A stretch of 64,000 nucleotides of DNA from Ochrobactrum sp. RH2CCR150 (lineage in GTDB: Bacteria > Pseudomonadota > Alphaproteobacteria > Rhizobiales > Rhizobiaceae), in NCBI GenBank assembly GCA_014138095.1, contig JACGXE010000001.1, positions 372,001-436,000 of the forward strand, read 5' to 3'. This document shows, one piece after another, positions 2,315 to 49,442 of the stretch. A program made the translations under genes and the position numbers. The number at the start of each line of letters is the position of its first letter. Within the stretch, counting starts at the first letter, position 1. The notes beneath the pieces are model-generated. The model worked only from the letters and a program-made list of their open reading frames with translations, was not told the DNA's origin and did no database searches.

Positions 2315-3022
2315 TCAGAACTTATAAGCGATGCCGAGACGAACATCGTTGGTTGACAGCTTTCCGCTGGCGTTGACGCTGGTATCGCCGACGTTGAAGT
2401 TGCGCTTGCCAAAATCGGTGTAGCGGTATTCAAGGCGCATAATAACATTGTCGGTTACGGCGTAGTCCGCACCGCCGCCAATGGTCCAGCCGGTCTGTAT
2501 TTTAGATTGGGACACAACCTTTTCACCCTGGAAATGCGCCCCGTCCTTTATATTGCCGAAAGCTGCACCGCCCGCGATGTAGGGCATAAAACGGTCAAGC
2601 GCGTAGCCGACACGCGCACGCGCCGCGCCGGACCACTGCAATTGCGTTTTGAAACTGGTGGGCTCATCGCCTCCTGTGGAGCCTGCCCTCTTGATCGCCG
2701 AACCGGCGAAATCACCATCGACACCGAGGATCAGGTTGGTTCCCGTATCAAAATTGTAACCGGCATAAATGCCTCCGAGGAAGCCATTCGAGCTGATTCC
2801 GTTTAATGCCGCTTTTTCCTCTTCTGACCGTGCCGAAAACTTGGAACTTCCCCAACCATAGCCGACCTGTCCGCCGACATAAGCGCCGCCCCAGTTGAAA
2901 GGAGTAGCAATGGGAACTGCCGGTGCGACAGGCGCCTCCGGAACAATGATATCTGTAGCATGAGCACTCGTGGCCATCAGAGCAAAAATGCCAGACGCAA
3001 TCATGGAAATTCTTGTACCCAA
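2315..3022 (-). CDS. Omp25/Omp31-family outer membrane beta-barrel protein (copy 2), TTG start
   Basis: Paralogue of the 884-1576 gene, 235 residues, with a signal peptide to about residue 23 (cleavage after SAHA) and the same barrel signatures (GGAYVGGQVGYGWG, NGFLGGIYAGYNF, RLEYRYTDF) and terminal AYKF. The start is read as TTG at 3022 because AGGAG lies 7 bases upstream of it, matching the position of the ATG in copy 1. The next ATG (3004) is too far from that site and would cut into the signal peptide. The copies differ mostly in loops, as expected for surface-exposed segments. Probably an outer membrane porin-like or hemin-binding protein; the exact role is unknown. Confidence 0.87.
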   Translation of the reverse strand: MGTRISMIASGIFALMATSAHATDIIVPEAPVAPAVPIATPFNWGGAYVGGQVGYGWGSSKFSARSEEEKAALNGISSNGFLGGIYAGYNFDTGTNLILGVDGDFAGSAIKRAGSTGGDEPTSFKTQLQWSGAARARVGYALDRFMPYIAGGAAFGNIKDGAHFQGEKVVSQSKIQTGWTIGGGADYAVTDNVIMRLEYRYTDFGKRNFNVGDTSVNASGKLSTNDVRLGIAYKF

Positions 3023-3154
3023 AATATTTCTCCTAAATATAACAAAGCAAGTATAAGCAACAGCCGCAGATAAAACGAATATAATGAAGAGTCAATTTAA
3101 TTTAAGAACTAATTAAAATAAAACAATTGCGTATAATATTGAAAAACAAAAAGA

Positions 3155-3180
3155 AAAAGCCCGCTATAAAGCGGGCTTTT
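3155..3180 (-). terminator. Intrinsic terminator of rpsA
   Basis: AAAAGCCCGC (3155-3164), a six-base loop TATAAA, then GCGGGCTTTT (3171-3180). Read on the minus strand it is a GC stem followed by a T-run, 27 bp past the rpsA stop. Confidence 0.9.
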
Positions 3181-3206
3181 CCATGTTTGCAAGAAGGGAG
3201 AAAAGA

Positions 3207-4907
3207 TTAGTTCTTTTCCTGCTTCTTCAGAGCGGCACCGAGGATGTCGCCGAGCGAAGCGCCGGAGTCGGTCGAACCGTACTGAGCGACAGCTTCTTTT
3301 TCTTCAGCGATTTCGAGCGCCTTGATCGAGACCTGCAGCTTGCGGGTCTTCTTGTCGAAAGCGATGACGCGAGCGTCAACCTTCTGACCGACCGTGAAGC
3401 GTTCCGGACGCTGTTCTTCGCGATCACGCGAAAGATCCGAACGGCGGATGAAGCTATCCAGGTCGTGATCGACCAGGCGAACTTCGAGGCCACCATCGGT
3501 AACAGCAGTCACTTCGCAGGTTACAACGGCGTTCTTGCGCAGTTCGCCCGAAGCTGCTGCTTCGCCGACCTTGTCGCCGGAAAGCTGCTTGATGCCAAGC
3601 GAGATGCGTTCCTTGTCGATGTCGACGTCGAGAACGACAGCCTTGACCACTTCGCCCTTGTTGTACTCTTCGATAACCTGTTCGCCTGGACGGTTCCAGT
3701 CGAGATCGGAGAGGTGAACCATGCCGTCAACGTCGCCGTCGAGACCAATGAACAGGCCGAATTCGGTCTTGTTCTTGACTTCGCCTTCAACAACGGTGCC
3801 GGTCGGGTACTTCTGAGCGAAGGTCGTCCACGGATTGTCGAGGGTCTGCTTGAGGCCGAGCGAGATACGGCGCTTGACCGGATCAACTTCGAGCACAACG
3901 ACTTCGACTTCCTGAGTGGTGGAGAGAATCTTGCCCGGATGGACATTCTTCTTGGTCCACGACATTTCGGAAACGTGGATGAGGCCTTCGATGCCCGGCT
4001 CGATTTCCACGAATGCACCGTAGTCGGTGATGTTCGTGACAGTGCCGGTGATCTTTTTGCCGATCGGGTACTTCGCGCCGATGCCATCCCAAGGATCGCT
4101 CTCGAGCTGCTTCATGCCGAGCGAGATACGATGGGTTTCCTGGTTGATGCGGATGATCTGCACCTTGACCGTCTGGCCGATGGTGAGGATTTCCGACGGA
4201 TGGTTGACGCGGCGCCATGCCATGTCGGTAACGTGCAGGAGACCGTCGATGCCGCCGAGGTCAACGAACGCACCATAATCGGTGATGTTTTTGACGACGC
4301 CTTCAACGACCTGACCTTCTTCAAGGTTCTGGACGATTTCCGAACGCTGTTCCGCACGGCTCTCTTCAAGAACGGTACGACGCGAGACAACGATGTTGCC
4401 ACGACGCTTGTCCATCTTGAGGATTTCGAACGGCTGCGGGACGTGCATGAGCGGGGTGACGTCGCGGATCGGACGGATGTCGACCTGCGAACGCGGCAGG
4501 AAGGCAACAGCGCCGTCGAGGTCGACGGTGAAACCACCCTTGACCTGATTGAAGATCACGCCGTCGACGCGCTCGCCATTGGCGAACTTCTGCTCGAGCT
4601 TGACCCAGCTTTCTTCACGACGTGCTTTTTCGCGCGAGAGAACAGCTTCGCCGAGAGCGTTTTCGATACGCTCGACGTAAACTTCAACTTCATCGCCCGG
4701 CTTCAGCGTGCCGTCTTTGCCCTTTGCGCCGAATTCCTTCAGCGGTACGCGGCCTTCGACCTTCAGACCGGCGTCGATGATCGCCATGTCCTTTTCGATG
4801 GCGACGATGCGGCCCTTGACGACATAGCCTTCAGCAAGATCGTTTTGCGCGAAGGATTCTGCCAGCAGGGACTCGAAATCTGCGCGGGAGGGGTTGGATT
4901 GAGACAT
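3207..4907 (-). CDS. rpsA: 30S ribosomal protein S1
   Basis: Ribosomal protein S1, 566 residues, which binds mRNA on the 30S subunit and helps start translation of weakly structured or weak-SD messages. Six successive S1 (OB-fold) domains can be followed, with repeated motifs such as VKNITDYGAFVDLGGIDGLL, VTNITDYGAFVEIEPGIEGL and VKNKTEFGLFIGLDGDVDGM. The frame is open further upstream, but the start is set at MSQSNPSRADFESLL (4907), which has AGGAG 9 bases before it and matches the family N-terminus. It lies downstream of aroA-cmk in the same direction, a gene order common in alphaproteobacteria, with 268 bp between cmk and rpsA that contain a degenerate intergenic repeat. Confidence 0.98.
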   Translation of the reverse strand: MSQSNPSRADFESLLAESFAQNDLAEGYVVKGRIVAIEKDMAIIDAGLKVEGRVPLKEFGAKGKDGTLKPGDEVEVYVERIENALGEAVLSREKARREESWVKLEQKFANGERVDGVIFNQVKGGFTVDLDGAVAFLPRSQVDIRPIRDVTPLMHVPQPFEILKMDKRRGNIVVSRRTVLEESRAEQRSEIVQNLEEGQVVEGVVKNITDYGAFVDLGGIDGLLHVTDMAWRRVNHPSEILTIGQTVKVQIIRINQETHRISLGMKQLESDPWDGIGAKYPIGKKITGTVTNITDYGAFVEIEPGIEGLIHVSEMSWTKKNVHPGKILSTTQEVEVVVLEVDPVKRRISLGLKQTLDNPWTTFAQKYPTGTVVEGEVKNKTEFGLFIGLDGDVDGMVHLSDLDWNRPGEQVIEEYNKGEVVKAVVLDVDIDKERISLGIKQLSGDKVGEAAASGELRKNAVVTCEVTAVTDGGLEVRLVDHDLDSFIRRSDLSRDREEQRPERFTVGQKVDARVIAFDKKTRKLQVSIKALEIAEEKEAVAQYGSTDSGASLGDILGAALKKQEKN

Positions 4908-5038
4908 ATATACTCCTGATGCATCCGGAAAATTCATCGGATGCGGCGCCGGGGGTTCGTGTTGTACACTGTCCGACCTCGGCTCCGTCTTTGCAGACAA
5001 CCGGCGCGTGGAACGCGAAGTCAGACTATTCATTATTC

Positions 5039-5086
5039 GGCACGACCTTTCTCGAAAACCGTTTTACAGCTTTCGAGGCCATGTTC
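5039..5086. repeat. Degenerate copy of the CGAAAACCGTTTCACACTTT intergenic repeat
   Basis: CTCGAAAACCGTTTTACAGC followed by TTTCGAGG resembles the better preserved copies at 41189-41236 and 54361-54406, with several substitutions. It lies in the cmk-rpsA spacer. Confidence 0.55.
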
Positions 5087-5175
5087 TATCAGAGCAGCCT
5101 ATATAGGGCCGATCTGGCATTTTTCCAGCATTTCCGGGGCAAATTCAGCTCAAAGAGCCGTAAAAAGCCTGATCA

Positions 5176-7551
<2,376 letters not shown>

Positions 7552-7947
7552 GTGGCAAAAGCTGAACTTGGTACCAAGCGCATCGACCCGGAAACGGGCA
7601 AGAAGTTTTACGATCTGAATCGCGATCCGATCGTTTCGCCTTACACCGGCATCTCCTATCCGCGTTCCTATTTCGACGCGAATGCAGAAGCCCGCGTCGT
7701 TGAAGAGGAAGCCGAAGAGGAAGAACTGGATACGGCAATGGAAAAGCCGGATTTCGTTTCTCTCGAGGATGCCGACGACGAAGCAAAGGGCAGCGGCGAC
7801 GATCTGCCGGATATGGGCGACGACGACGATGACGTCGATCTGGGTGACGACGATGACGACACCTTCCTTGAAGAAGAGGAAGACGAGGACGACGATATGT
7901 CGGGTATCCTCGGCGGTGGCGTCGGCGGCGACGACGAAGAAGGCTGA
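7552..7947 (+). CDS. TIGR02300/FYDLN acid domain protein
   Basis: Conserved alphaproteobacterial protein of unknown function, 131 residues. The N-terminal 45 residues hold the family signature KKFYDLNRDPIVSPYTG, followed by an extremely acidic tail with runs of Asp and Glu (for example GDDDDDVDLGDDDDD) that is probably disordered. The start is GTG at 7552, with GAGG seven bases upstream. A clear intrinsic terminator follows. Its position between aroA (divergent) and tRNA-Ala is the usual context in Brucella and rhizobia. Unusually low-pI proteins of this kind may bind nucleic-acid-binding proteins, but nothing here shows this. Confidence 0.92.
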   Translation: MAKAELGTKRIDPETGKKFYDLNRDPIVSPYTGISYPRSYFDANAEARVVEEEAEEEELDTAMEKPDFVSLEDADDEAKGSGDDLPDMGDDDDDVDLGDDDDDTFLEEEEDEDDDMSGILGGGVGGDDEEG

Positions 7948-7984
7948 TCCTTCGGGAATCGCTTCGAATTTTTGGAATTGCAGA

Positions 7985-8016
7985 AAGGGCAGCCCAGCGG
8001 GCTGCCCTTCTTTTTT
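7985..8016 (+). terminator. Intrinsic terminator after the FYDLN protein
   Basis: AAGGGCAGCCC, a three-base loop AGC, then GGGCTGCCCTT and TCTTTTTT. A perfect 11-bp stem with a T-run, 38 bp after the stop. Confidence 0.95.
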
Positions 8017-8193
8017 GGCGTGGAAGTGGACGCTTTCCACAACCTCCGGCGGCGGATACGGTCATTCGGCAAATTATTTTCGCAGATGTGAAAAGAGTTG
8101 CGATTTAGCTCTTGATCTTCTGGCAAACGCCATTTAATAAGCCGCCACACCGGGCAGCAAGTTCTGCCTGGCCCACCTCGAAAGAGGTCTGAT

Positions 8194-8269
8194 GGGGCCA
8201 TAGCTCAGCTGGGAGAGCGCCTGCATGGCATGCAGGAGGTCAGCGGTTCGATCCCGCTTGGCTCCACCA
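8194..8269 (+). tRNA. tRNA-Ala (anticodon GGC)
   Basis: 76-nt cloverleaf with encoded CCA. The acceptor GGGGCCA pairs with TGGCTCC (one G-T pair), the D arm GCTCAGCTGGGAGAGC is present, and the anticodon stem CCTGC/GCAGG encloses loop ATGGCAT with anticodon GGC. The T arm contains GGTTCGATCC. It reads GCC and GCU alanine codons. Confidence 0.97.
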
Positions 8270-8407
8270 AATTCCCCCTTGAATGAACAATCCGCTATTT
8301 CTTTCCGCCAGCGAAAGTCCTGATGGTCGCGCTGTAATTTTCGTTCAATTTTTGCCCGCAAGTTCAATTCATGCTCGACTTTATCGCGGAAGCATATACT
8401 GACATAT

Positions 8408-9535
8408 ATGTTCGAGTATTTTCGCGATGTCATTCAAATGAAGCGGCTTCCAGATTTCGACGGTCTTCGATTTTTATTGTGTGTGGGAATCGCGATTTTC
8501 CATTATTCTTTTCGGATGCCCATCCGGAACGATGGGATACATTCGGTTATATTAACGTTTACTTATTTTACCGATGTCTTTTTCATCCTGTCTGGATTGT
8601 TCCTTGCATTGCGCTCAAATTATGATTGGAATTCCGTCCGTTACGTATCTTTCGTTGGCAAACGGCTTGCGCGGATTTATCCGTTGCACGTGGCCGCCTT
8701 TTCCTGCTTCGCCCTGATGTCGATCCTTGCGGCGACAGGGCTGTTTCACCCATCGATACCGCCAAACATGAATTGGCGTGACGGGCTGGCTCAATTGCTG
8801 CTCGTGCATAACTGGGGGTTGGGAAAGAGCTTTTCCTATAATTATGTCAGCTGGTCTCTTAGCGCCTTGTTACTGATGTATCTGTGCTTCCCGCTGTTCG
8901 ACAGGCTCTGCAAGCGTTTTGGCGATGGGATGCTTGTTCTGGTCGCTGTGGCTCTGCTTGGCGGTGAATATGTGGCGCGGGTTTTGGACACGCCCTCACT
9001 GACCCGGGTGCAATTTGCCGATCTTGGTGTTTTCCGCGTCTTGCCGTCCTTTCTATTCGGCATGTGGCTGGCGCGGCAGAAGCATGCCAATCTGCCGAAG
9101 ACCTTTATCAAGCTTGCTCTGGCGGCCTGTCTGGTAATCTTCCTGTTTTATCATCCGAAAAGCGGAATACCGGACACCCCAACGCTTGAAGGGCCGTGGC
9201 GGCTCGTCTTTCTCTATTTCAGCGTCTATGTGCTTTTCGCCGCCAGTCGCCAGAATCTCTACACGCCGCTGCAATGGAGCGGCTTTGTGAAGATGTCGCG
9301 CTACAGTTTCGGCATTTTCATTCTTCACCCACTGGTCGGCGTGGTATTTTTCAAGCTGGTTCCTGACGGCTGGGGGCAAACGACCATAAGCGCAATTGTG
9401 CTGATGAGCTTGGCTGTCCTGGCCAGTATCGTTACTGCTGTCGTTGCATGGAATATGTTTGAAAATCCGATCCATCGCTGGGCGGTGCGGCGCATCGATA
9501 TGTGGGCGGACAATAGAACGAAAACACAAGAGTGA
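8408..9535 (+). CDS. Acyltransferase-3 family membrane protein (OafA/YrhL type)
   Basis: Multi-pass inner membrane O-acyltransferase, 375 residues, of the family that acetylates surface polysaccharides, LPS, Nod factors or peptidoglycan. The N-terminus has the family motif around FDGLRFLLCVGIAIFHYSFR, containing the catalytic-type His, and RLARIYPLHVAAF follows near residue 90. About ten hydrophobic helices can be seen. The start may be 8408 or the Met at 8438 just before the FDGLR motif. Base composition is less GC-rich than its neighbours, and it stands alone between tRNA-Ala and the leucine catabolism block, so acquisition by transfer is possible. The acceptor cannot be told from sequence. 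Confidence 0.88.
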   Translation: MFEYFRDVIQMKRLPDFDGLRFLLCVGIAIFHYSFRMPIRNDGIHSVILTFTYFTDVFFILSGLFLALRSNYDWNSVRYVSFVGKRLARIYPLHVAAFSCFALMSILAATGLFHPSIPPNMNWRDGLAQLLLVHNWGLGKSFSYNYVSWSLSALLLMYLCFPLFDRLCKRFGDGMLVLVAVALLGGEYVARVLDTPSLTRVQFADLGVFRVLPSFLFGMWLARQKHANLPKTFIKLALAACLVIFLFYHPKSGIPDTPTLEGPWRLVFLYFSVYVLFAASRQNLYTPLQWSGFVKMSRYSFGIFILHPLVGVVFFKLVPDGWGQTTISAIVLMSLAVLASIVTAVVAWNMFENPIHRWAVRRIDMWADNRTKTQE

Positions 9536-9604
9536 TGCGCTGACACGACGCATGAGTCTGAAAAGCATGGACCTGTCGGGAAGTCTATTTTAGAAAACTC
9601 TGAC

Positions 9605-41571: not shown

Positions 41572-41660
41572 GGGAATAGGGGAGTAGGGAAATAGGGCAG
41601 TAGGGCAGTAGGGCAATATGTTTTATACATACTCACTTACTCCCCTATTCCCTTACTGCC
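41572..41660. repeat. Octanucleotide array in inverted arrangement upstream of mrp
   Basis: Six imperfect 8-bp units of type GGNANTAG (41572-41619: GGGAATAG, GGGAGTAG, GGAAATAG, GGCAGTAG twice, GGCAATAT), a short AT spacer, then three units in the opposite orientation (41637-41660: TTACTCCC, CTATTCCC, TTACTGCC). The two halves can pair. Read in another phase, two units are AGGGCAGT, the octamer of Brucella HOOF-Print loci. Confidence 0.88.
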
Positions 41661-42884: not shown

Positions 42885-42922
42885 TGAAGAGAGCGCTTGA
42901 ACAAGGTTTCGGCCTTACTAGC

Positions 42923-43002
42923 CTATTCCCCTATTCCCCTATTCCCCTATTCCCCTATTCCCCTATTCCCCTATTCCCCTATTCCCCTATTCCCCTATTC
43001 CC
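42923..43002. repeat. Perfect (CTATTCCC)10 tandem array between mrp and pgm
   Basis: Ten exact, contiguous copies of CTATTCCC, followed by a partial unit CTA and, eight bases on, the pgm stop codon. Reverse complement of GGGAATAG, the commonest unit of the array upstream of mrp. A perfect array of this length is expected to vary in copy number by slipped-strand replication. Confidence 0.97.
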
Positions 43003-43010
43003 CTAACTGA

Positions 43011-44974
<1,964 letters not shown>

Positions 44975-47692
44975 TTAGTATTTGTTGGAAAAAATTGCAT
45001 CACCCATAAATAGGCTGGTGACACCCGTCATGGCCCCAACCATTTCGTTTCCGCTTAGTCCGAAATCTGTTCTGATGCCAGCAATCTCGACCTCCTTCCG
45101 CACTTGATGCAGAATATCCATACCGTCTAACCCAAGGGTTCGTGCAAGGTAATAATCCGCCATCATTCCGTGGCAGATGCCGTGAGAAGAGCGTATTTCA
45201 CCAAGCCGCGCAGTTACGATGGCCATATCGGAGTCATAGGTTTCGGCGGGTATATATGGGCGGCAATGCAATCTTGAGTAGCCGATGCCGACTGTACCAT
45301 GGCACCAGGATGTGCTGTAGACGTTGTCTTTTCCAATACGGGGCCATCCCAGCTCTGTGCGGTATCTGGTCTCTCGCTCAAGATTGCGCAATATGACTGA
45401 AAGCGCCTCATCATCTTCTTGCTGGAAATAGGTCATGTACTCAGCAAGTACCGCCGACACGCCCGCCGTTCCGTGAGCAAAGCCCAGTGACGTGGTTTGG
45501 TCGTCAACCAGAGATCCGGCTTTGCGTTTCAAGAGATTGAATGAAAAATCAGCTAGCCTGGCGATTTTCTCTGCAATTGGATAATCGCGGAACTGTTGGT
45601 GTAGCCTCAGCAACATGCTTAAAGTGCCCCCAATGCCGCTCACAAACTCGATCTGCTCGTAATGCTCCACTGTCTCTGTTAGCAAGCAATAAGAAATTTT
45701 ACTCAGTTCACGATCAATAATAGGCAGAAGCTTGATCAGGCGCGCATTGTTTATGACACCGAGGCTCCACAGAGTTCCCGCCGTGCCGCTCAATGCACCG
45801 AGTTCAGCCGAAGACGTGTCTTGGAGCTGTTCGATAGTCTGGTCGGAAATCCTGCCAGCGAATTCCGTGAAACGGGGACAAGACAAACGCTGACCGGTAA
45901 TATGGAAGGCCAAAGCAATGCCGGAAATGCCTTGATAAAGGTCAATTCCACTCAAACCCGCATGAATTATATCGTCTTTTATGTGGATTGTACGCCAATT
46001 GATTTTTTCGTCGATCATCAGCGCGCAGTCCATAACCTTGCTCATTGCAAAATAAGCCAGTTTATCGATCCATTGCTCGGTGGATACCGCCTCTTGCGCT
46101 TCATCTTCATAAATTGTTTTTCTCGCGACCCATTTCTCCCCTTTCCTCAAGCGATAAACGAGGAATGCCTGCTCGGCGTCCTCCATGACCTGTTGGATAA
46201 AGGCAGGTGTTAGTCGCGAGAACTGGCTCTCGAGTTTTTGCCGGGGCGATTGATGAATGATCGTTGGGAGCTTCTCTCCAAATCCATTGAGCAGAACAGA
46301 AGAATCGAACGGCATAGAAAAATAAGGAACGTCGCCGCGAGTCAGTTCTAGTAGCTCTGACTCCATAATATTTGTATCCCGGCTCGGATCGCAAAGAGCG
46401 AGCAGCTCTTGCGCTGCACTATCCTTTTTCAAAGAACTGGGATGGCCGCAATTATATAGTATCTTTGTATATTCTTCTGTTGATTGCTTGATGATGCGAA
46501 TAGGAGCGCGACCAATATTGTCCCGTATAGCCCGGAGAACCTCGTCTCGGTTCTCGTGGACGAAAATTAGGGTTTCCCGTATCCCGTAAAGGATATCGCT
46601 CTCGTGTTGAATAAAATCGACTACATTTCCATTGAAGATAACTTGGCTTTGGTATTCCCCTGTATGTAGTTTTCTCCGTTCCATTTTAAGGGAGGAAACG
46701 CGTTTTTGGGGATTCACCAGAATGTCGATATTCGTTTGAACGTTCGATTGGGCGCTCAATGCGCTTATTTCCAGTTCATCATACAACGTCTCTGTGGGCA
46801 AAAGCAGCGAGCTGTACAGGTGATTATTCGTTGGATTGTGTCGTTCTGATTCCAAGGTACATGAGAAAAGCGTCTCCAGGTCGACAAGGATCGGATATTC
46901 GCCACAGGCGATGATGTTTTCCATATGAAGGTCGGTCGAGGAACAGAGATGAGCGAGCGCTATTAATGAACCATAGCGGCGATAAAAGTTTTTCACTTGT
47001 TCCGCAGTTTGGCATTCCTTCGGAACAATCGCTTCAGCCCAGCCGTAGTTTCCCTTGTTGATTGCACGCGGGAGAACATGATCAATTGGTGAGTGCTTGT
47101 TCCACCATGCAATGAAGTTGTAGTAGCCTTCATCTATGGCGATACTACGCGGTTTATAATAAAGTAAACGGCTGCGGCCTTCCTCATTTATGTACTCAAG
47201 CCGCGCGGTTTGCTGCATCCCTCGGTGAGGGTCGCCTATCATACGGATATCATTAATTCTCGTAATTGCATTATCGCTATGGAAATACTTCGCGGCCACG
47301 TTCAGATCCGTCTCGATACGGTCCATGAACTGTTGCAAAGAAATCGAAAAAATACTTATCTCTTGCTGCCACGTCGACCATAGTCTGGGATATTTTTCGC
47401 AAAGCGCCGACAAATTTTCTTGCTTGCAAACCTCTCGGATAAAAAATGCAAACCGGACGTTCTCTGTGTCCCCTTGCAGTAATCCGTCTTCGTCTGCAAA
47501 GTTCATCTCCAGTATCAGTACCCTTTCCCATTTTCTTTTGAATATTGGGAATAACGCTTCTTCCGCGATTTTACCGAATAATTTATTAGATATAATTTTA
47601 TTATCAATCTCTTTGATTTTTAGAATAATTCCGTCAGTGATATTTTTGTATACGTAATAAAACACGTCATCTTTTATACATTTGCAGTTCAT
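44975..47692 (-). CDS. Class II lanthipeptide synthetase (LanM)
   Basis: 905-residue bifunctional LanM enzyme. The N-terminal dehydratase domain (DUF4135, about 90-500) phosphorylates and eliminates Ser/Thr of the precursor; kinase-like residues are visible as Lys180 in LLYYKPRSIAID, Asp254/His256/Asn259 in STDLHMENI and Asp271/Glu273 in LVDLETLF. The C-terminal LanC-like cyclase (about 570-905) has AHGTAGVSAVLAEY and the zinc ligands Cys797 (STSWCHGTVGIG) and Cys840-His841 (SHGICHGMMADY), so it should form thioether rings. Less GC-rich than its neighbours. The small precursor gene lies 85 bp upstream on the same strand. No LanT, LanP or immunity gene adjoins it. Length is normal for LanM and no frameshift is seen. 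Confidence 0.95.
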   Translation of the reverse strand: MNCKCIKDDVFYYVYKNITDGIILKIKEIDNKIISNKLFGKIAEEALFPIFKRKWERVLILEMNFADEDGLLQGDTENVRFAFFIREVCKQENLSALCEKYPRLWSTWQQEISIFSISLQQFMDRIETDLNVAAKYFHSDNAITRINDIRMIGDPHRGMQQTARLEYINEEGRSRLLYYKPRSIAIDEGYYNFIAWWNKHSPIDHVLPRAINKGNYGWAEAIVPKECQTAEQVKNFYRRYGSLIALAHLCSSTDLHMENIIACGEYPILVDLETLFSCTLESERHNPTNNHLYSSLLLPTETLYDELEISALSAQSNVQTNIDILVNPQKRVSSLKMERRKLHTGEYQSQVIFNGNVVDFIQHESDILYGIRETLIFVHENRDEVLRAIRDNIGRAPIRIIKQSTEEYTKILYNCGHPSSLKKDSAAQELLALCDPSRDTNIMESELLELTRGDVPYFSMPFDSSVLLNGFGEKLPTIIHQSPRQKLESQFSRLTPAFIQQVMEDAEQAFLVYRLRKGEKWVARKTIYEDEAQEAVSTEQWIDKLAYFAMSKVMDCALMIDEKINWRTIHIKDDIIHAGLSGIDLYQGISGIALAFHITGQRLSCPRFTEFAGRISDQTIEQLQDTSSAELGALSGTAGTLWSLGVINNARLIKLLPIIDRELSKISYCLLTETVEHYEQIEFVSGIGGTLSMLLRLHQQFRDYPIAEKIARLADFSFNLLKRKAGSLVDDQTTSLGFAHGTAGVSAVLAEYMTYFQQEDDEALSVILRNLERETRYRTELGWPRIGKDNVYSTSWCHGTVGIGYSRLHCRPYIPAETYDSDMAIVTARLGEIRSSHGICHGMMADYYLARTLGLDGMDILHQVRKEVEIAGIRTDFGLSGNEMVGAMTGVTSLFMGDAIFSNKY

Positions 47693-47728
47693 TTGAATAC
47701 TTCAATAATATAGTTTAAATAATTTGTG

Positions 47729-47759
47729 TGCATTGGGCCCTATCTGCGGGCCCAATGCA
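47729..47759 (-). promoter_or_regulatory. 12-bp perfect stem-loop between precursor and lanM
   Basis: TGCATTGGGCCC (47729-47740), loop TATCTGC, GGGCCCAATGCA (47748-47759). It lies between the precursor stop and the lanM start. In lantibiotic operons such a hairpin commonly limits read-through so that precursor mRNA exceeds enzyme mRNA. There is no T-run, so processing or stabilisation is as likely as termination. Confidence 0.75.
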
Positions 47760-47777
47760 TACATTATAATATAAATA

Positions 47778-47903
47778 TTAAATGCAAACTTGGTAGCAGC
47801 ATGTGCAGAAGCTTGTGTAGTGGTTTGATTTTGTTGGATTGACTTTTGTCGTCGTTCCAACGATTTTATCGACTTTGTCGCTGTGGAATTTCTTAGAGAT
47901 CAT
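47778..47903 (-). CDS. Candidate lanthipeptide precursor peptide (LanA)
   Basis: 41 residues: MISKKFHSDKVDKIVG (charged leader-like part), then TTTKVNPTKSNHYTSF and CTCCYQVCI. Four cysteines (33, 35, 36, 40) sit at the C-terminus, preceded by Thr17-19, Thr24, Ser26, Thr30, Ser31 and Thr34, giving enough Ser/Thr donors for thioether rings. The start ATG at 47903 has TTGGAG 8 bases upstream, an excellent site; the frame continues upstream but without one. Its place directly before lanM, on the same strand, is the usual lanA position. The CTCC motif recalls Cys-Cys ends of lacticin-481-like peptides. The leader is short (about 16 residues if cut after Gly16). AT-rich. Confidence 0.82.
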   Translation of the reverse strand: MISKKFHSDKVDKIVGTTTKVNPTKSNHYTSFCTCCYQVCI

Positions 47904-47967
47904 CTTTATTCTCCAAAAATACAGGTTGGTTTTAATTTCAATATAAAGCTGTAGTGTTTTAATTTTT

Positions 47968-47995
47968 GCCATCAATAATTATAGATTCTGATGGC
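47968..47995. promoter_or_regulatory. Inverted repeat upstream of the lanthipeptide precursor gene
   Basis: GCCATCA (47968-47974) and TGATGGC (47989-47995), 14-base AT-rich spacer, about 65 bp before the precursor start in an AT-rich promoter-like stretch. Possible operator; not matched to a known regulator. Confidence 0.4.
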
Positions 47996-48149
47996 TTTAT
48001 AATTAAAGCATAAAATTATTAATCCGTTTATCCCAAATAATAAAGAATTTTATTCCATTTTAATTGGGGTGGATGAAATACGGGGCGTGTGAGTTCTTTC
48101 AGGCGACGTCAGGATTCTATACAAAATGCAATTTTTGAGTTTGTGGGCG

Positions 48150-49442
48150 CTAGCCTGCATCCTTGAACAGCACACTCTGGTCGAACAGATAGCGGTTGGA
48201 AAGCGGCAGGCTTGCGGCACCCATGGCCTTGGCGTGGACGCCGACCTTGCCCTCGATGATTTCCGGCGCACTGAGCCCCTGAAGATCGAGGCGGGAAAGT
48301 TCGGCCCGCGTCGCTTCGACAATGCGATGGCGAACGCCTTCCGGTAGCCATCCATCGATAATGGCTGCAGGGAAATCGATGATCGATGCTGCCGCAACCG
48401 CCGCATGGGCAAGCCCGCGTGCGGCGAGTGCAATCCAGGCATCCAGTGGTTCGCCGAAATTGTGCCAGCTTTCGGGGGAAAGCCAGAGATCGTCGGACGA
48501 AATATTCTGCTCCTGCAACAGCCGCTCCAGCACGAAAAGAGAGGCGGTATCGATCAGCTGCAATGTCGCGCGGCCGTCTTCGGCGCTGCGCATGCGCATC
48601 GGCATGGAACCAAGCGCACCGGCATTGCCCGTCCGGCCCGGATAGAGCGTATTGTTCAGCACCACGCCGCCGCCAATGAACGAGCCGATGAAGAAATAGA
48701 CGAAATCGGTGAATTCCGGCCCGCGCCCGAAGGTCAGTTCCGCGCCACAGGCCGCCGTGCCGTCATTCTGGAGAAACACCGGGAACGGAAAGACTGCGCC
48801 GAAATCGTCGACGAGATCGGCATCGAGCCACGCATTCATGTCGGCAGCGGGCGCACCCACTTCCTCGACCCAGTTCCACAGCTCGAAAGGCAACGCGATG
48901 CCGAGACCCGCAATGCGATCGCGCTTGTCCGGATCGAGTGCGGCGGTGAAAGCGGCAATGCTGTCAAAGGCGAAACGACGAATTTCGTCGGGCACCGGCC
49001 AGCGATAGGTGATGTGCCTGCGTTCACGGATCGCGCCCAGAAAATCCATCAATATGATTTCCGCGCTGCGTCGTCCGATCTTGAGGCCGAAGGAGAAAAC
49101 GCCGTCGGCTGCAAGCCGCATCGGCATGGAAGGCTGGCCGACGCGTCCGCGCACGCGCTCGCCTTGGGTGATCAACCCATCTTTCTCCAGCGCGCGAATG
49201 ATGACGGAAACGGTCTGTGCCGAAAGGCCGGTCAGGCGCGCAATATCGGCTCGGGCCAGTGCGCCATGCCTGCGAACGAGCGCCAGAACCAGCCGCTCAT
49301 TATAGGCGCGCACGCCGATCTGGTTGGAACCGCGATTGATGTTCGCGCCCGGTTCGGCAAATTTCTGCATGGCAGGGCCGGGCGAACCTGCCGGTCCGTC
49401 CCTCGGCTCGGAAACGTCCTGTTCCGGATGATGCCTGACCAT
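48150..49442 (-). CDS. frcR: ROK family transcriptional regulator, probable FrcR
   Basis: 430 residues from ATG 49442, with GGGAG before it. The N-terminal winged helix-turn-helix (RLVLALVRRHGALARADIARLTGLSAQTVSVIIRALEKDGLI) is followed by a ROK sugar-kinase-like domain with LNNTLYPGRTGNAGALGSMPM. It is divergent from frcBCAK. In Sinorhizobium meliloti a ROK gene of this kind adjoins the fructose ABC transporter, so control of the frc genes is likely. It probably represses frcB through the palindrome at 49629-49655. The gene name is by context and similarity recalled from memory. Confidence 0.85.
   Translation of the reverse strand: MVRHHPEQDVSEPRDGPAGSPGPAMQKFAEPGANINRGSNQIGVRAYNERLVLALVRRHGALARADIARLTGLSAQTVSVIIRALEKDGLITQGERVRGRVGQPSMPMRLAADGVFSFGLKIGRRSAEIILMDFLGAIRERRHITYRWPVPDEIRRFAFDSIAAFTAALDPDKRDRIAGLGIALPFELWNWVEEVGAPAADMNAWLDADLVDDFGAVFPFPVFLQNDGTAACGAELTFGRGPEFTDFVYFFIGSFIGGGVVLNNTLYPGRTGNAGALGSMPMRMRSAEDGRATLQLIDTASLFVLERLLQEQNISSDDLWLSPESWHNFGEPLDAWIALAARGLAHAAVAAASIIDFPAAIIDGWLPEGVRHRIVEATRAELSRLDLQGLSAPEIIEGKVGVHAKAMGAASLPLSNRYLFDQSVLFKDAG

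What the first reader, a model, noticed from the sequence alone, without database searches (positions are those of the whole stretch)
44975..47903. Minimal class II lanthipeptide locus (lanA-lanM) between frcR and pgm in a Brucella/Ochrobactrum-like genome
A 905-residue LanM with intact-looking kinase-like (K180, D254/H256/N259, D271/E273) and zinc (C797, C840-H841) residues lies just downstream of a 41-codon Cys-rich gene with an excellent ribosome-binding site. Both are AT-rich relative to neighbours. No LanT/LanP, immunity or regulator gene is nearby, so maturation and export would have to be done elsewhere, or the product may stay unexported. Lanthipeptides from Brucellaceae are, as far as I know, little studied, so the peptide may be new.
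Basis: partly seen in the sequence, partly recalled or inferred. Interest (0 to 1): 0.88.

Follow-up and report, generated by a model that had tools for sequence, protein, structure and literature searches.

The report
Two-gene lanthipeptide cassette without exporter
A small mobile pair of genes, one for a short peptide and one for the enzyme that should staple it into rings, sits in a Brucella/Ochrobactrum-type genome; relatives suggest that the peptide belongs to a small family with an unusually short leader and no matching export protease.

Summary
44975-47692 (-) encodes a 905-aa LanM (TIGR03897 458 bits, cut-off 304) whose CylM-type catalytic residues and zinc ligands are kept. Upstream is a 41-codon gene (47778-47903, -). 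The pair fills an AT-rich insert of about 3.4 kb between pgm and frcR. Of 29 relatives fetched, 5 have no gene there, 9 have araC-DUF2000 and 15 are unresolved.

All 9 clade loci carry a homologous short precursor: conserved leader with [VI]-Gly at 15-16, no conserved Gly-Gly site, variable core with 1-5 Cys. Leave-one-out searches rank it first in 10 of 10 loci. A hairpin follows the first precursor in 8 of 9. Four of 9 also encode a hot-dog-fold protein before lanM, absent from the window genome. No C39 peptidase was found in the window genome or four other clade genomes, two of them incomplete.

Most likely: a horizontally moved class II lanthipeptide cassette without dedicated LanT. Product, leader removal, export and activity are unknown. 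New variant of a known kind.

The parts
47778..47903 (-). lanA-like precursor gene, 41 aa; leader about residues 1-22, core after it (border inferred, set by eye)
   Evidence: ribosome-binding site, homologous leader at all 9 clade loci, leave-one-out E 0.001
47911..47914 (-). Shine-Dalgarno GGAG, 7 nt before ATG
   Evidence: read from sequence
47729..47759 (-). 12-bp perfect stem with 7-nt loop between lanA and lanM
   Evidence: -29.4 kcal/mol for the 88-nt interval, z -5.86, 0 of 200 shuffles as stable
44975..47692 (-). lanM, class II lanthipeptide synthetase, 905 aa
44755..48144 (.). extent of the AT-rich insert between pgm and frcR (ends good to several nt)
   Evidence: in relatives L042, L045, L048 the DNA matching up to 44754 and from 48145-48152 lies 6-10 nt apart
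43011..44642 (-). flanking gene, phosphoglucomutase (pgm); not part of the cassette

Best explanation
This is a horizontally acquired two-gene class II lanthipeptide cassette. The 41-aa precursor is bound through its short N-terminal leader; the LanM kinase-like half phosphorylates and dehydrates Ser/Thr of the C-terminal core, and the zinc-bearing LanC half adds Cys thiols to make thioether rings. The hairpin after lanA probably raises lanA mRNA over lanM mRNA. Shown by sequence: both genes, kept catalytic residues, a leader family linked to this LanM clade, the insertion, and no C39 peptidase match in the genome. Inferred: that LanM modifies this peptide, the leader/core border, the hairpin's role, the transfer. 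Not known: ring pattern, leader removal (a host protease, or none), export (a general transporter, or none) and activity. I favour a small secreted or envelope-acting antibacterial or signalling peptide released by general host proteases and transporters, but only weakly.
For: LanM family hits; CylM residues kept; the precursor family is present at 9 of 9 clade lanM loci and ranks first in leave-one-out tests at 10 of 10 loci (three of the loci, L011, L012 and L013, have near-alike precursors, so these are not fully independent); with the border set by eye at residue 22, 0 Cys in 12 of 12 leaders and 1-5 Cys plus 3-8 Ser/Thr in 12 of 12 cores; hairpin after the first precursor in 8 of 9 loci; gene-free sites and a different cargo at the same spot in relatives; in the LanM tree Phyllobacterium salinisoli joins the window and Falsochrobactrum (100/99), not P. 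leguminum.
Against: No product, expression or modification data. The window precursor has the weakest leave-one-out score of the family (E 0.001, 15.5 bits). The Paenochrobactrum MAG core has a single Cys, so only one ring is possible. The distribution is patchy: 5 of 35 genus genomes, 8 of 297 family genomes, of which the window and four others are of this clade. One lanM is interrupted by an IS66 element and G083 keeps precursors without lanM nearby; both also fit a dispensable or decaying gene pair. Some forks of the tree are open.
Confidence: 0.85

Rival explanations
1. The peptide stays in the cell, or is never released from its leader: an intracellular ringed peptide with a regulatory role rather than a secreted one.
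For: No further gene of this kind in the insert; no C39 peptidase match in 5 of the 9 clade lanM genomes (G000, G017, G025, and the incomplete G008 and G190), and in the other four the C39 match lies on a contig other than lanM's; no conserved Gly-Gly site, the residue after Gly16 varies.
Against: Variable Cys-bearing cores look like products aimed at outside targets (inference); general proteases and ABC exporters are expected in every genome (recalled); an ABC transporter gene (ABC_membrane_2; SbmA_BacA 23.4 bits, just under its cut-off of 24) sits beside the Falsochrobactrum locus.
Confidence: 0.3
2. The cassette is a remnant: lanA/lanM came by transfer with a larger cluster whose exporter, protease and (where once present) hot-dog genes were lost, and it no longer makes a product.
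For: Hot-dog gene in 4 of 9 clade loci and not in the window genome; IS66 interruption in Brucella oryzae; precursors without lanM nearby in G083; patchy distribution.
Against: LanM is full length with the catalytic residues kept in the 8 uninterrupted copies, at down to 41% identity to the window's, which argues for selection; the form with precursor directly before lanM recurs in four loci (window, L010, L014, L023).
Confidence: 0.12
3. The small gene is not the LanM substrate, and LanM acts on another peptide elsewhere in the genome.
For: No direct modification data; LanM enzymes of some cyanobacteria act in trans (recalled).
Against: In the window genome the next-best hit of the precursor profile has E 0.20 (the gene itself, E 2.5e-10, is part of the profile), and in all 9 loci a family member lies upstream of lanM, in four of them with the hot-dog gene between.
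Confidence: 0.05

Closest known systems
LicM2 (PDB 6st5) and CylM (PDB 5dzt), class II lanthipeptide synthetases
   Same: LanM architecture; catalytic and zinc residues align.
   Different: Matched only at a distance (189 and 103 bits); LanMs outside the clade that were listed are 21-34% identical over the matched segments; the clade sits on a long stem, at least 1.95 changes per site with a midpoint root; its precursors have short leaders without a conserved Gly-Gly.
Class II precursors with Gly-Gly leaders cut by a C39 LanT (mersacidin, lacticin 481, NHLP and Nif11 types; recalled)
   Same: Leader plus Ser/Thr/Cys core; the precursor sits near lanM.
   Different: No Gly-Gly site in the window peptide, leader of about 22 residues, no C39 match in the genome; no Pfam or NCBIfam lanthipeptide precursor model matches.
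Acylated lanthipeptides (lipolanthines, recalled; nostolysamides, PMC13060382, start of abstract seen in the listing)
   Same: A possible functional parallel for the hot-dog gene of relatives, since many hot-dog enzymes handle acyl thioesters (recalled).
   Different: The third gene is a hot-dog protein, not the acyltransferase or polyketide/fatty-acid enzymes recalled for those; it is not found in the window genome.

Membership tests
Class II lanthipeptide synthetase (LanM) | DUF4135 dehydratase fused to LanC-like cyclase, above curated cut-offs | tested here: met
Class II lanthipeptide synthetase (LanM) | Phosphorylation and phosphate-elimination residues of CylM | tested here: met
   D154, H156, K180, D254, H256, N259, D271, R399, T405
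Class II lanthipeptide synthetase (LanM) | Zinc ligands Cys, Cys-His of the cyclase | tested here: met
   C797, C840, H841 invariant in the 8 LanMs aligned, on the CHG motifs of LicM2
Class II lanthipeptide (product) | Dehydrated Ser/Thr and thioether rings in the peptide | not testable with these tools
   needs mass spectrometry
Class II lanthipeptide precursor | Precursor gene near lanM with conserved leader and variable Ser/Thr/Cys core | tested here: met
Gly-Gly leader / C39 LanT system | Gly-Gly, Gly-Ala or Gly-Ser at the leader end | tested here: not met
   the window peptide has one Gly only, G16, followed by Thr; among 12 peptides L014 alone has Gly-Gly at 16-17
Gly-Gly leader / C39 LanT system | C39-peptidase ABC transporter in the genome | tested here: not met
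   0 matches at E up to 0.001 in the window genome (99.99% complete); 4 of the 9 clade lanM genomes do have one, away from lanM
Named precursor families (Pfam, NCBIfam) | Match to a curated model | tested here: not met
   0 of 11 in NCBIfam at E up to 1; in Pfam three weak hits (best E 0.055, one member each), none a lanthipeptide family
Hot-dog fold proteins (FabZ/thioesterase superfamily), relatives only | Hot-dog fold | tested here: met
FabZ dehydratase, relatives only | Catalytic His and helix Glu/Asp | tested here: inconclusive
   D56, R57 and Q60 invariant at the start of the central helix, no invariant His in the 4 sequences; the correspondence to FabZ residues is recalled, not aligned residue by residue

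The most novel reading that the evidence does not exclude
A separate lineage of class II lanthipeptides, so far seen only in the Brucella-Phyllobacterium group, built on a leader of about 16-22 residues without a protease site and working without any dedicated exporter; in its three-gene form a hot-dog protein puts on or trims an acyl group, or acts as a peptide chaperone for LanM, giving a kind of lanthipeptide not yet described, of which the window holds a streamlined two-gene form.
Probability: 0.2. Interest if true: 0.65.

Novelty: new variant of a known kind. Interest (0 to 1): 0.5.

Why it matters
Class II lanthipeptide pathways are usually described with a C39 LanT that cuts and exports (recalled); a clade in which well-covered genomes show no C39 match asks how such peptides are finished and whether they leave the cell. 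The very short leader would make a compact test system for how LanM recognises substrates. The hot-dog gene of the relatives is a candidate partner for LanM that I found in no paper or family library searched here. The main texts of two lanthipeptide surveys (PMC7268733, PMC11251773; term search and passages only) do not contain the words Brucella or Ochrobactrum.

Tried and rejected
Window precursor against Pfam and NCBIfam: no match. A genome-contig scan with the single LanM found nothing; with the alignment it found 18 loci, 7 of this clade, missing G024. LanM in viral contigs: none. LanM in plasmids: 191 records, all under 60% identity; the 25 listed are 22-26%. Hot-dog protein in plasmids: none; hot-dog profile in the PDB by sequence: none. 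Considered and rejected: a stray ORF (leader family and leave-one-out test argue against it); a pseudogene lanM (frame and residues kept).

Papers: lanthipeptide with Brucella (15 papers), Ochrobactrum (7) and Phyllobacterium (3), and lantipeptide with Ochrobactrum and antiSMASH (3), were seen as listings only; no title or shown abstract start describes this system, and those papers were not opened. Class II lanthipeptide with hotdog, lanthipeptide with hot-dog fold, and a four-term search with Alphaproteobacteria gave 0. (1, 3 and 23 papers, 12 of the last listed) named nothing on it in what was shown. Papers outside the library and all supplements are not covered.

Promoter and terminator scans were at chance level. 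Rows dropped: G205/L025, a distant LanM with a nitrile-hydratase-like leader (label recalled), and G309 and G141 were left out of the clade counts; the interrupted G008 lanM was left out of alignment A1 and of the tree. G008 and G190 are incomplete genomes (69% and 89%), so absences there are weak. The hairpin z-scores are not corrected for the 11 stretches folded, and in L065 10 of 200 shuffles were as stable.

Full report
What is there. The frame 44975-47692 (-) is a 905-aa LanM: PF13575 matches over 1-377 of 378 and PF05147 over 5-281 of 350, and NCBIfam calls it type 2 lanthipeptide synthetase LanM at 458 bits against a cut-off of 304. In the phmmer alignment to CylM the residues that eLife.07607 (passages seen) names for phosphorylation and phosphate elimination fall on Asp154/His156, Lys180, Asp254/His256/Asn259, Asp271, Arg399 and Thr405. 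Cys797 and Cys840-His841 fall on the CHG motifs of LicM2. These are invariant in the 8 LanMs of the clade that were aligned (the interrupted ninth was not).

The small gene 47778-47903 (-) has GGAG 7 nt before ATG. Seen alone it matches no family model. Its standing comes from relatives. This LanM is found in 5 of 35 genomes of the genus, the window included, and in 8 of 297 of the family, of which the window and four others (58, 50, 49 and 42% identical) belong to this clade; the rest are distant. Together that makes nine clade loci. A named search places seven of them: Falsochrobactrum shanghaiense, Phyllobacterium salinisoli, P. leguminum, a Paenochrobactrum MAG, a Rhizobiales isolate, Brucella sp. 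21LCYQ03 and B. oryzae. At each of the nine loci a short gene near lanM encodes a peptide that starts like the window's: roughly MISxKYDxxxAxxVVG, then a variable core. [VI]15-Gly16 is present in 12 of 12 peptides (11 from the nine loci, one from G083), once the extra first residue of L024 is taken off. With the border set by eye at residue 22, leaders have no Cys in 12 of 12, and cores have 1-5 Cys and 3-8 Ser/Thr. With each locus left out of training in turn, the precursor frame ranks first in 10 of 10 loci; for the window it is the best of 1381 frames at E 0.001, the next at 0.22. The precursors of L011, L012 and L013 are near-alike, so the ten tests are not fully independent. In the nine lanM genomes every hit under E 0.09 lies near lanM.

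Surroundings. Between lanA and lanM lies a 12-bp perfect stem with a 7-nt loop (z -5.9). Stems of unrelated sequence follow the first precursor in 8 of 9 loci (window; L064, L065, L066, L067, L069, L070; L012, long and imperfect; z from -2.0 to -5.9), and not in L068. The stretch after the second precursor of L066 and the second half of the L012 interval show none. I read this as lanA transcript protection or partial termination, by inference.

The pair lies in an AT-rich insert. Of the 35 genus genomes all hold the pgm DNA; 30 stretches were fetched, the window's own and 29 of relatives. In 14 of those 29 frcR shows within the stretch: in L042, L045 and L048 pgm-side and frcR-side DNA lie 6-10 nt apart, in L052 and L061 only a short spacer of up to about 160 nt is left, and in nine (L035-L039, L041, L043, L046, L047) about 1.3 kb with an AraC-type regulator and a DUF2000 protein lies between (Pfam names checked in L037 only; in L047 the AraC frame is in two pieces). 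The other 15 did not show frcR in the stretch and are unresolved. In Falsochrobactrum (G017) lanM lies on another contig than pgm. In the LanM tree P. salinisoli joins the window and Falsochrobactrum (100/99) rather than P. leguminum, and the clade sits on a long stem (at least 1.95 changes per site, midpoint root; several forks are open and outgroup branches long). This is what transfer of a small cassette would give.

How it may work. LanM dehydrates and cyclises the core; that is established for the family and inferred here. The usual C39 LanT is not found: no Peptidase_C39 match in the window genome, nor in G017, G025, G008 and G190, the last two incomplete; G024, G290, G174 and G202 have one on a contig other than lanM's, and G290's lanM contig is only 5 kb. 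The window leader has no Gly-Gly. So leader removal and export, if they occur, would use other enzymes. The locus of Falsochrobactrum has an ABC transporter gene running away from the precursor (ABC_membrane_2; SbmA_BacA just under its cut-off), seen only there. Neighbouring genes of relatives were Pfam-scanned only in part, so another exporter is not excluded.

Against my reading: no product is shown; the window precursor scores weakest of the family; the Paenochrobactrum core has one Cys only; B. oryzae lanM is split by an IS66 element; G083 keeps two precursor relatives, one with a stop inside, beside other genes, with no lanM in the 19 kb fetched and none reported in the family search. Decay has thus happened in some lineages, while the window copy looks intact.

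Novelty. The enzyme kind is known. The precursor family, its link to a LanM clade, the lack of a C39 match and the hot-dog partner were found under no name in the libraries and paper searches listed. I file it as a new variant of a known kind.

Noticed in passing
window 42922-43005: 10.5 perfect copies of the 8-mer CCTATTCC between an Mrp/ApbC-like gene and pgm, with a less regular array of an 8-mer at 41575-41618.
   Followed up: no
window 44755-48144 and relatives L035-L063: The pgm-frcR interval is a variable spot: no gene in five relatives, AraC plus DUF2000 in nine, lanA-lanM in the window, 15 of 29 unresolved.
   Followed up: partly
L111 (G083) 2380-9600: Two relatives of the precursor (one with a stop inside) without LanM nearby; the last codons of the open one hold the likely ribosome-binding site of a deoxyhypusine-synthase-like gene, followed by a 2-hydroxyacid dehydrogenase, a SAM-decarboxylase/spermidine-synthase frame and an ABC ATPase. 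A recombination junction, or another pathway using the same leader.
   Followed up: partly
L013 10377-12840: IS66-family transposase genes interrupt lanM in Brucella oryzae.
   Followed up: yes
L012 7675-7839: G024 has a second precursor-family gene downstream of lanM with a good ribosome-binding site.
   Followed up: partly
L025: A distant LanM in G205 goes with a long precursor that looks like the nitrile-hydratase-leader type, unlike this clade (label recalled).
   Followed up: no
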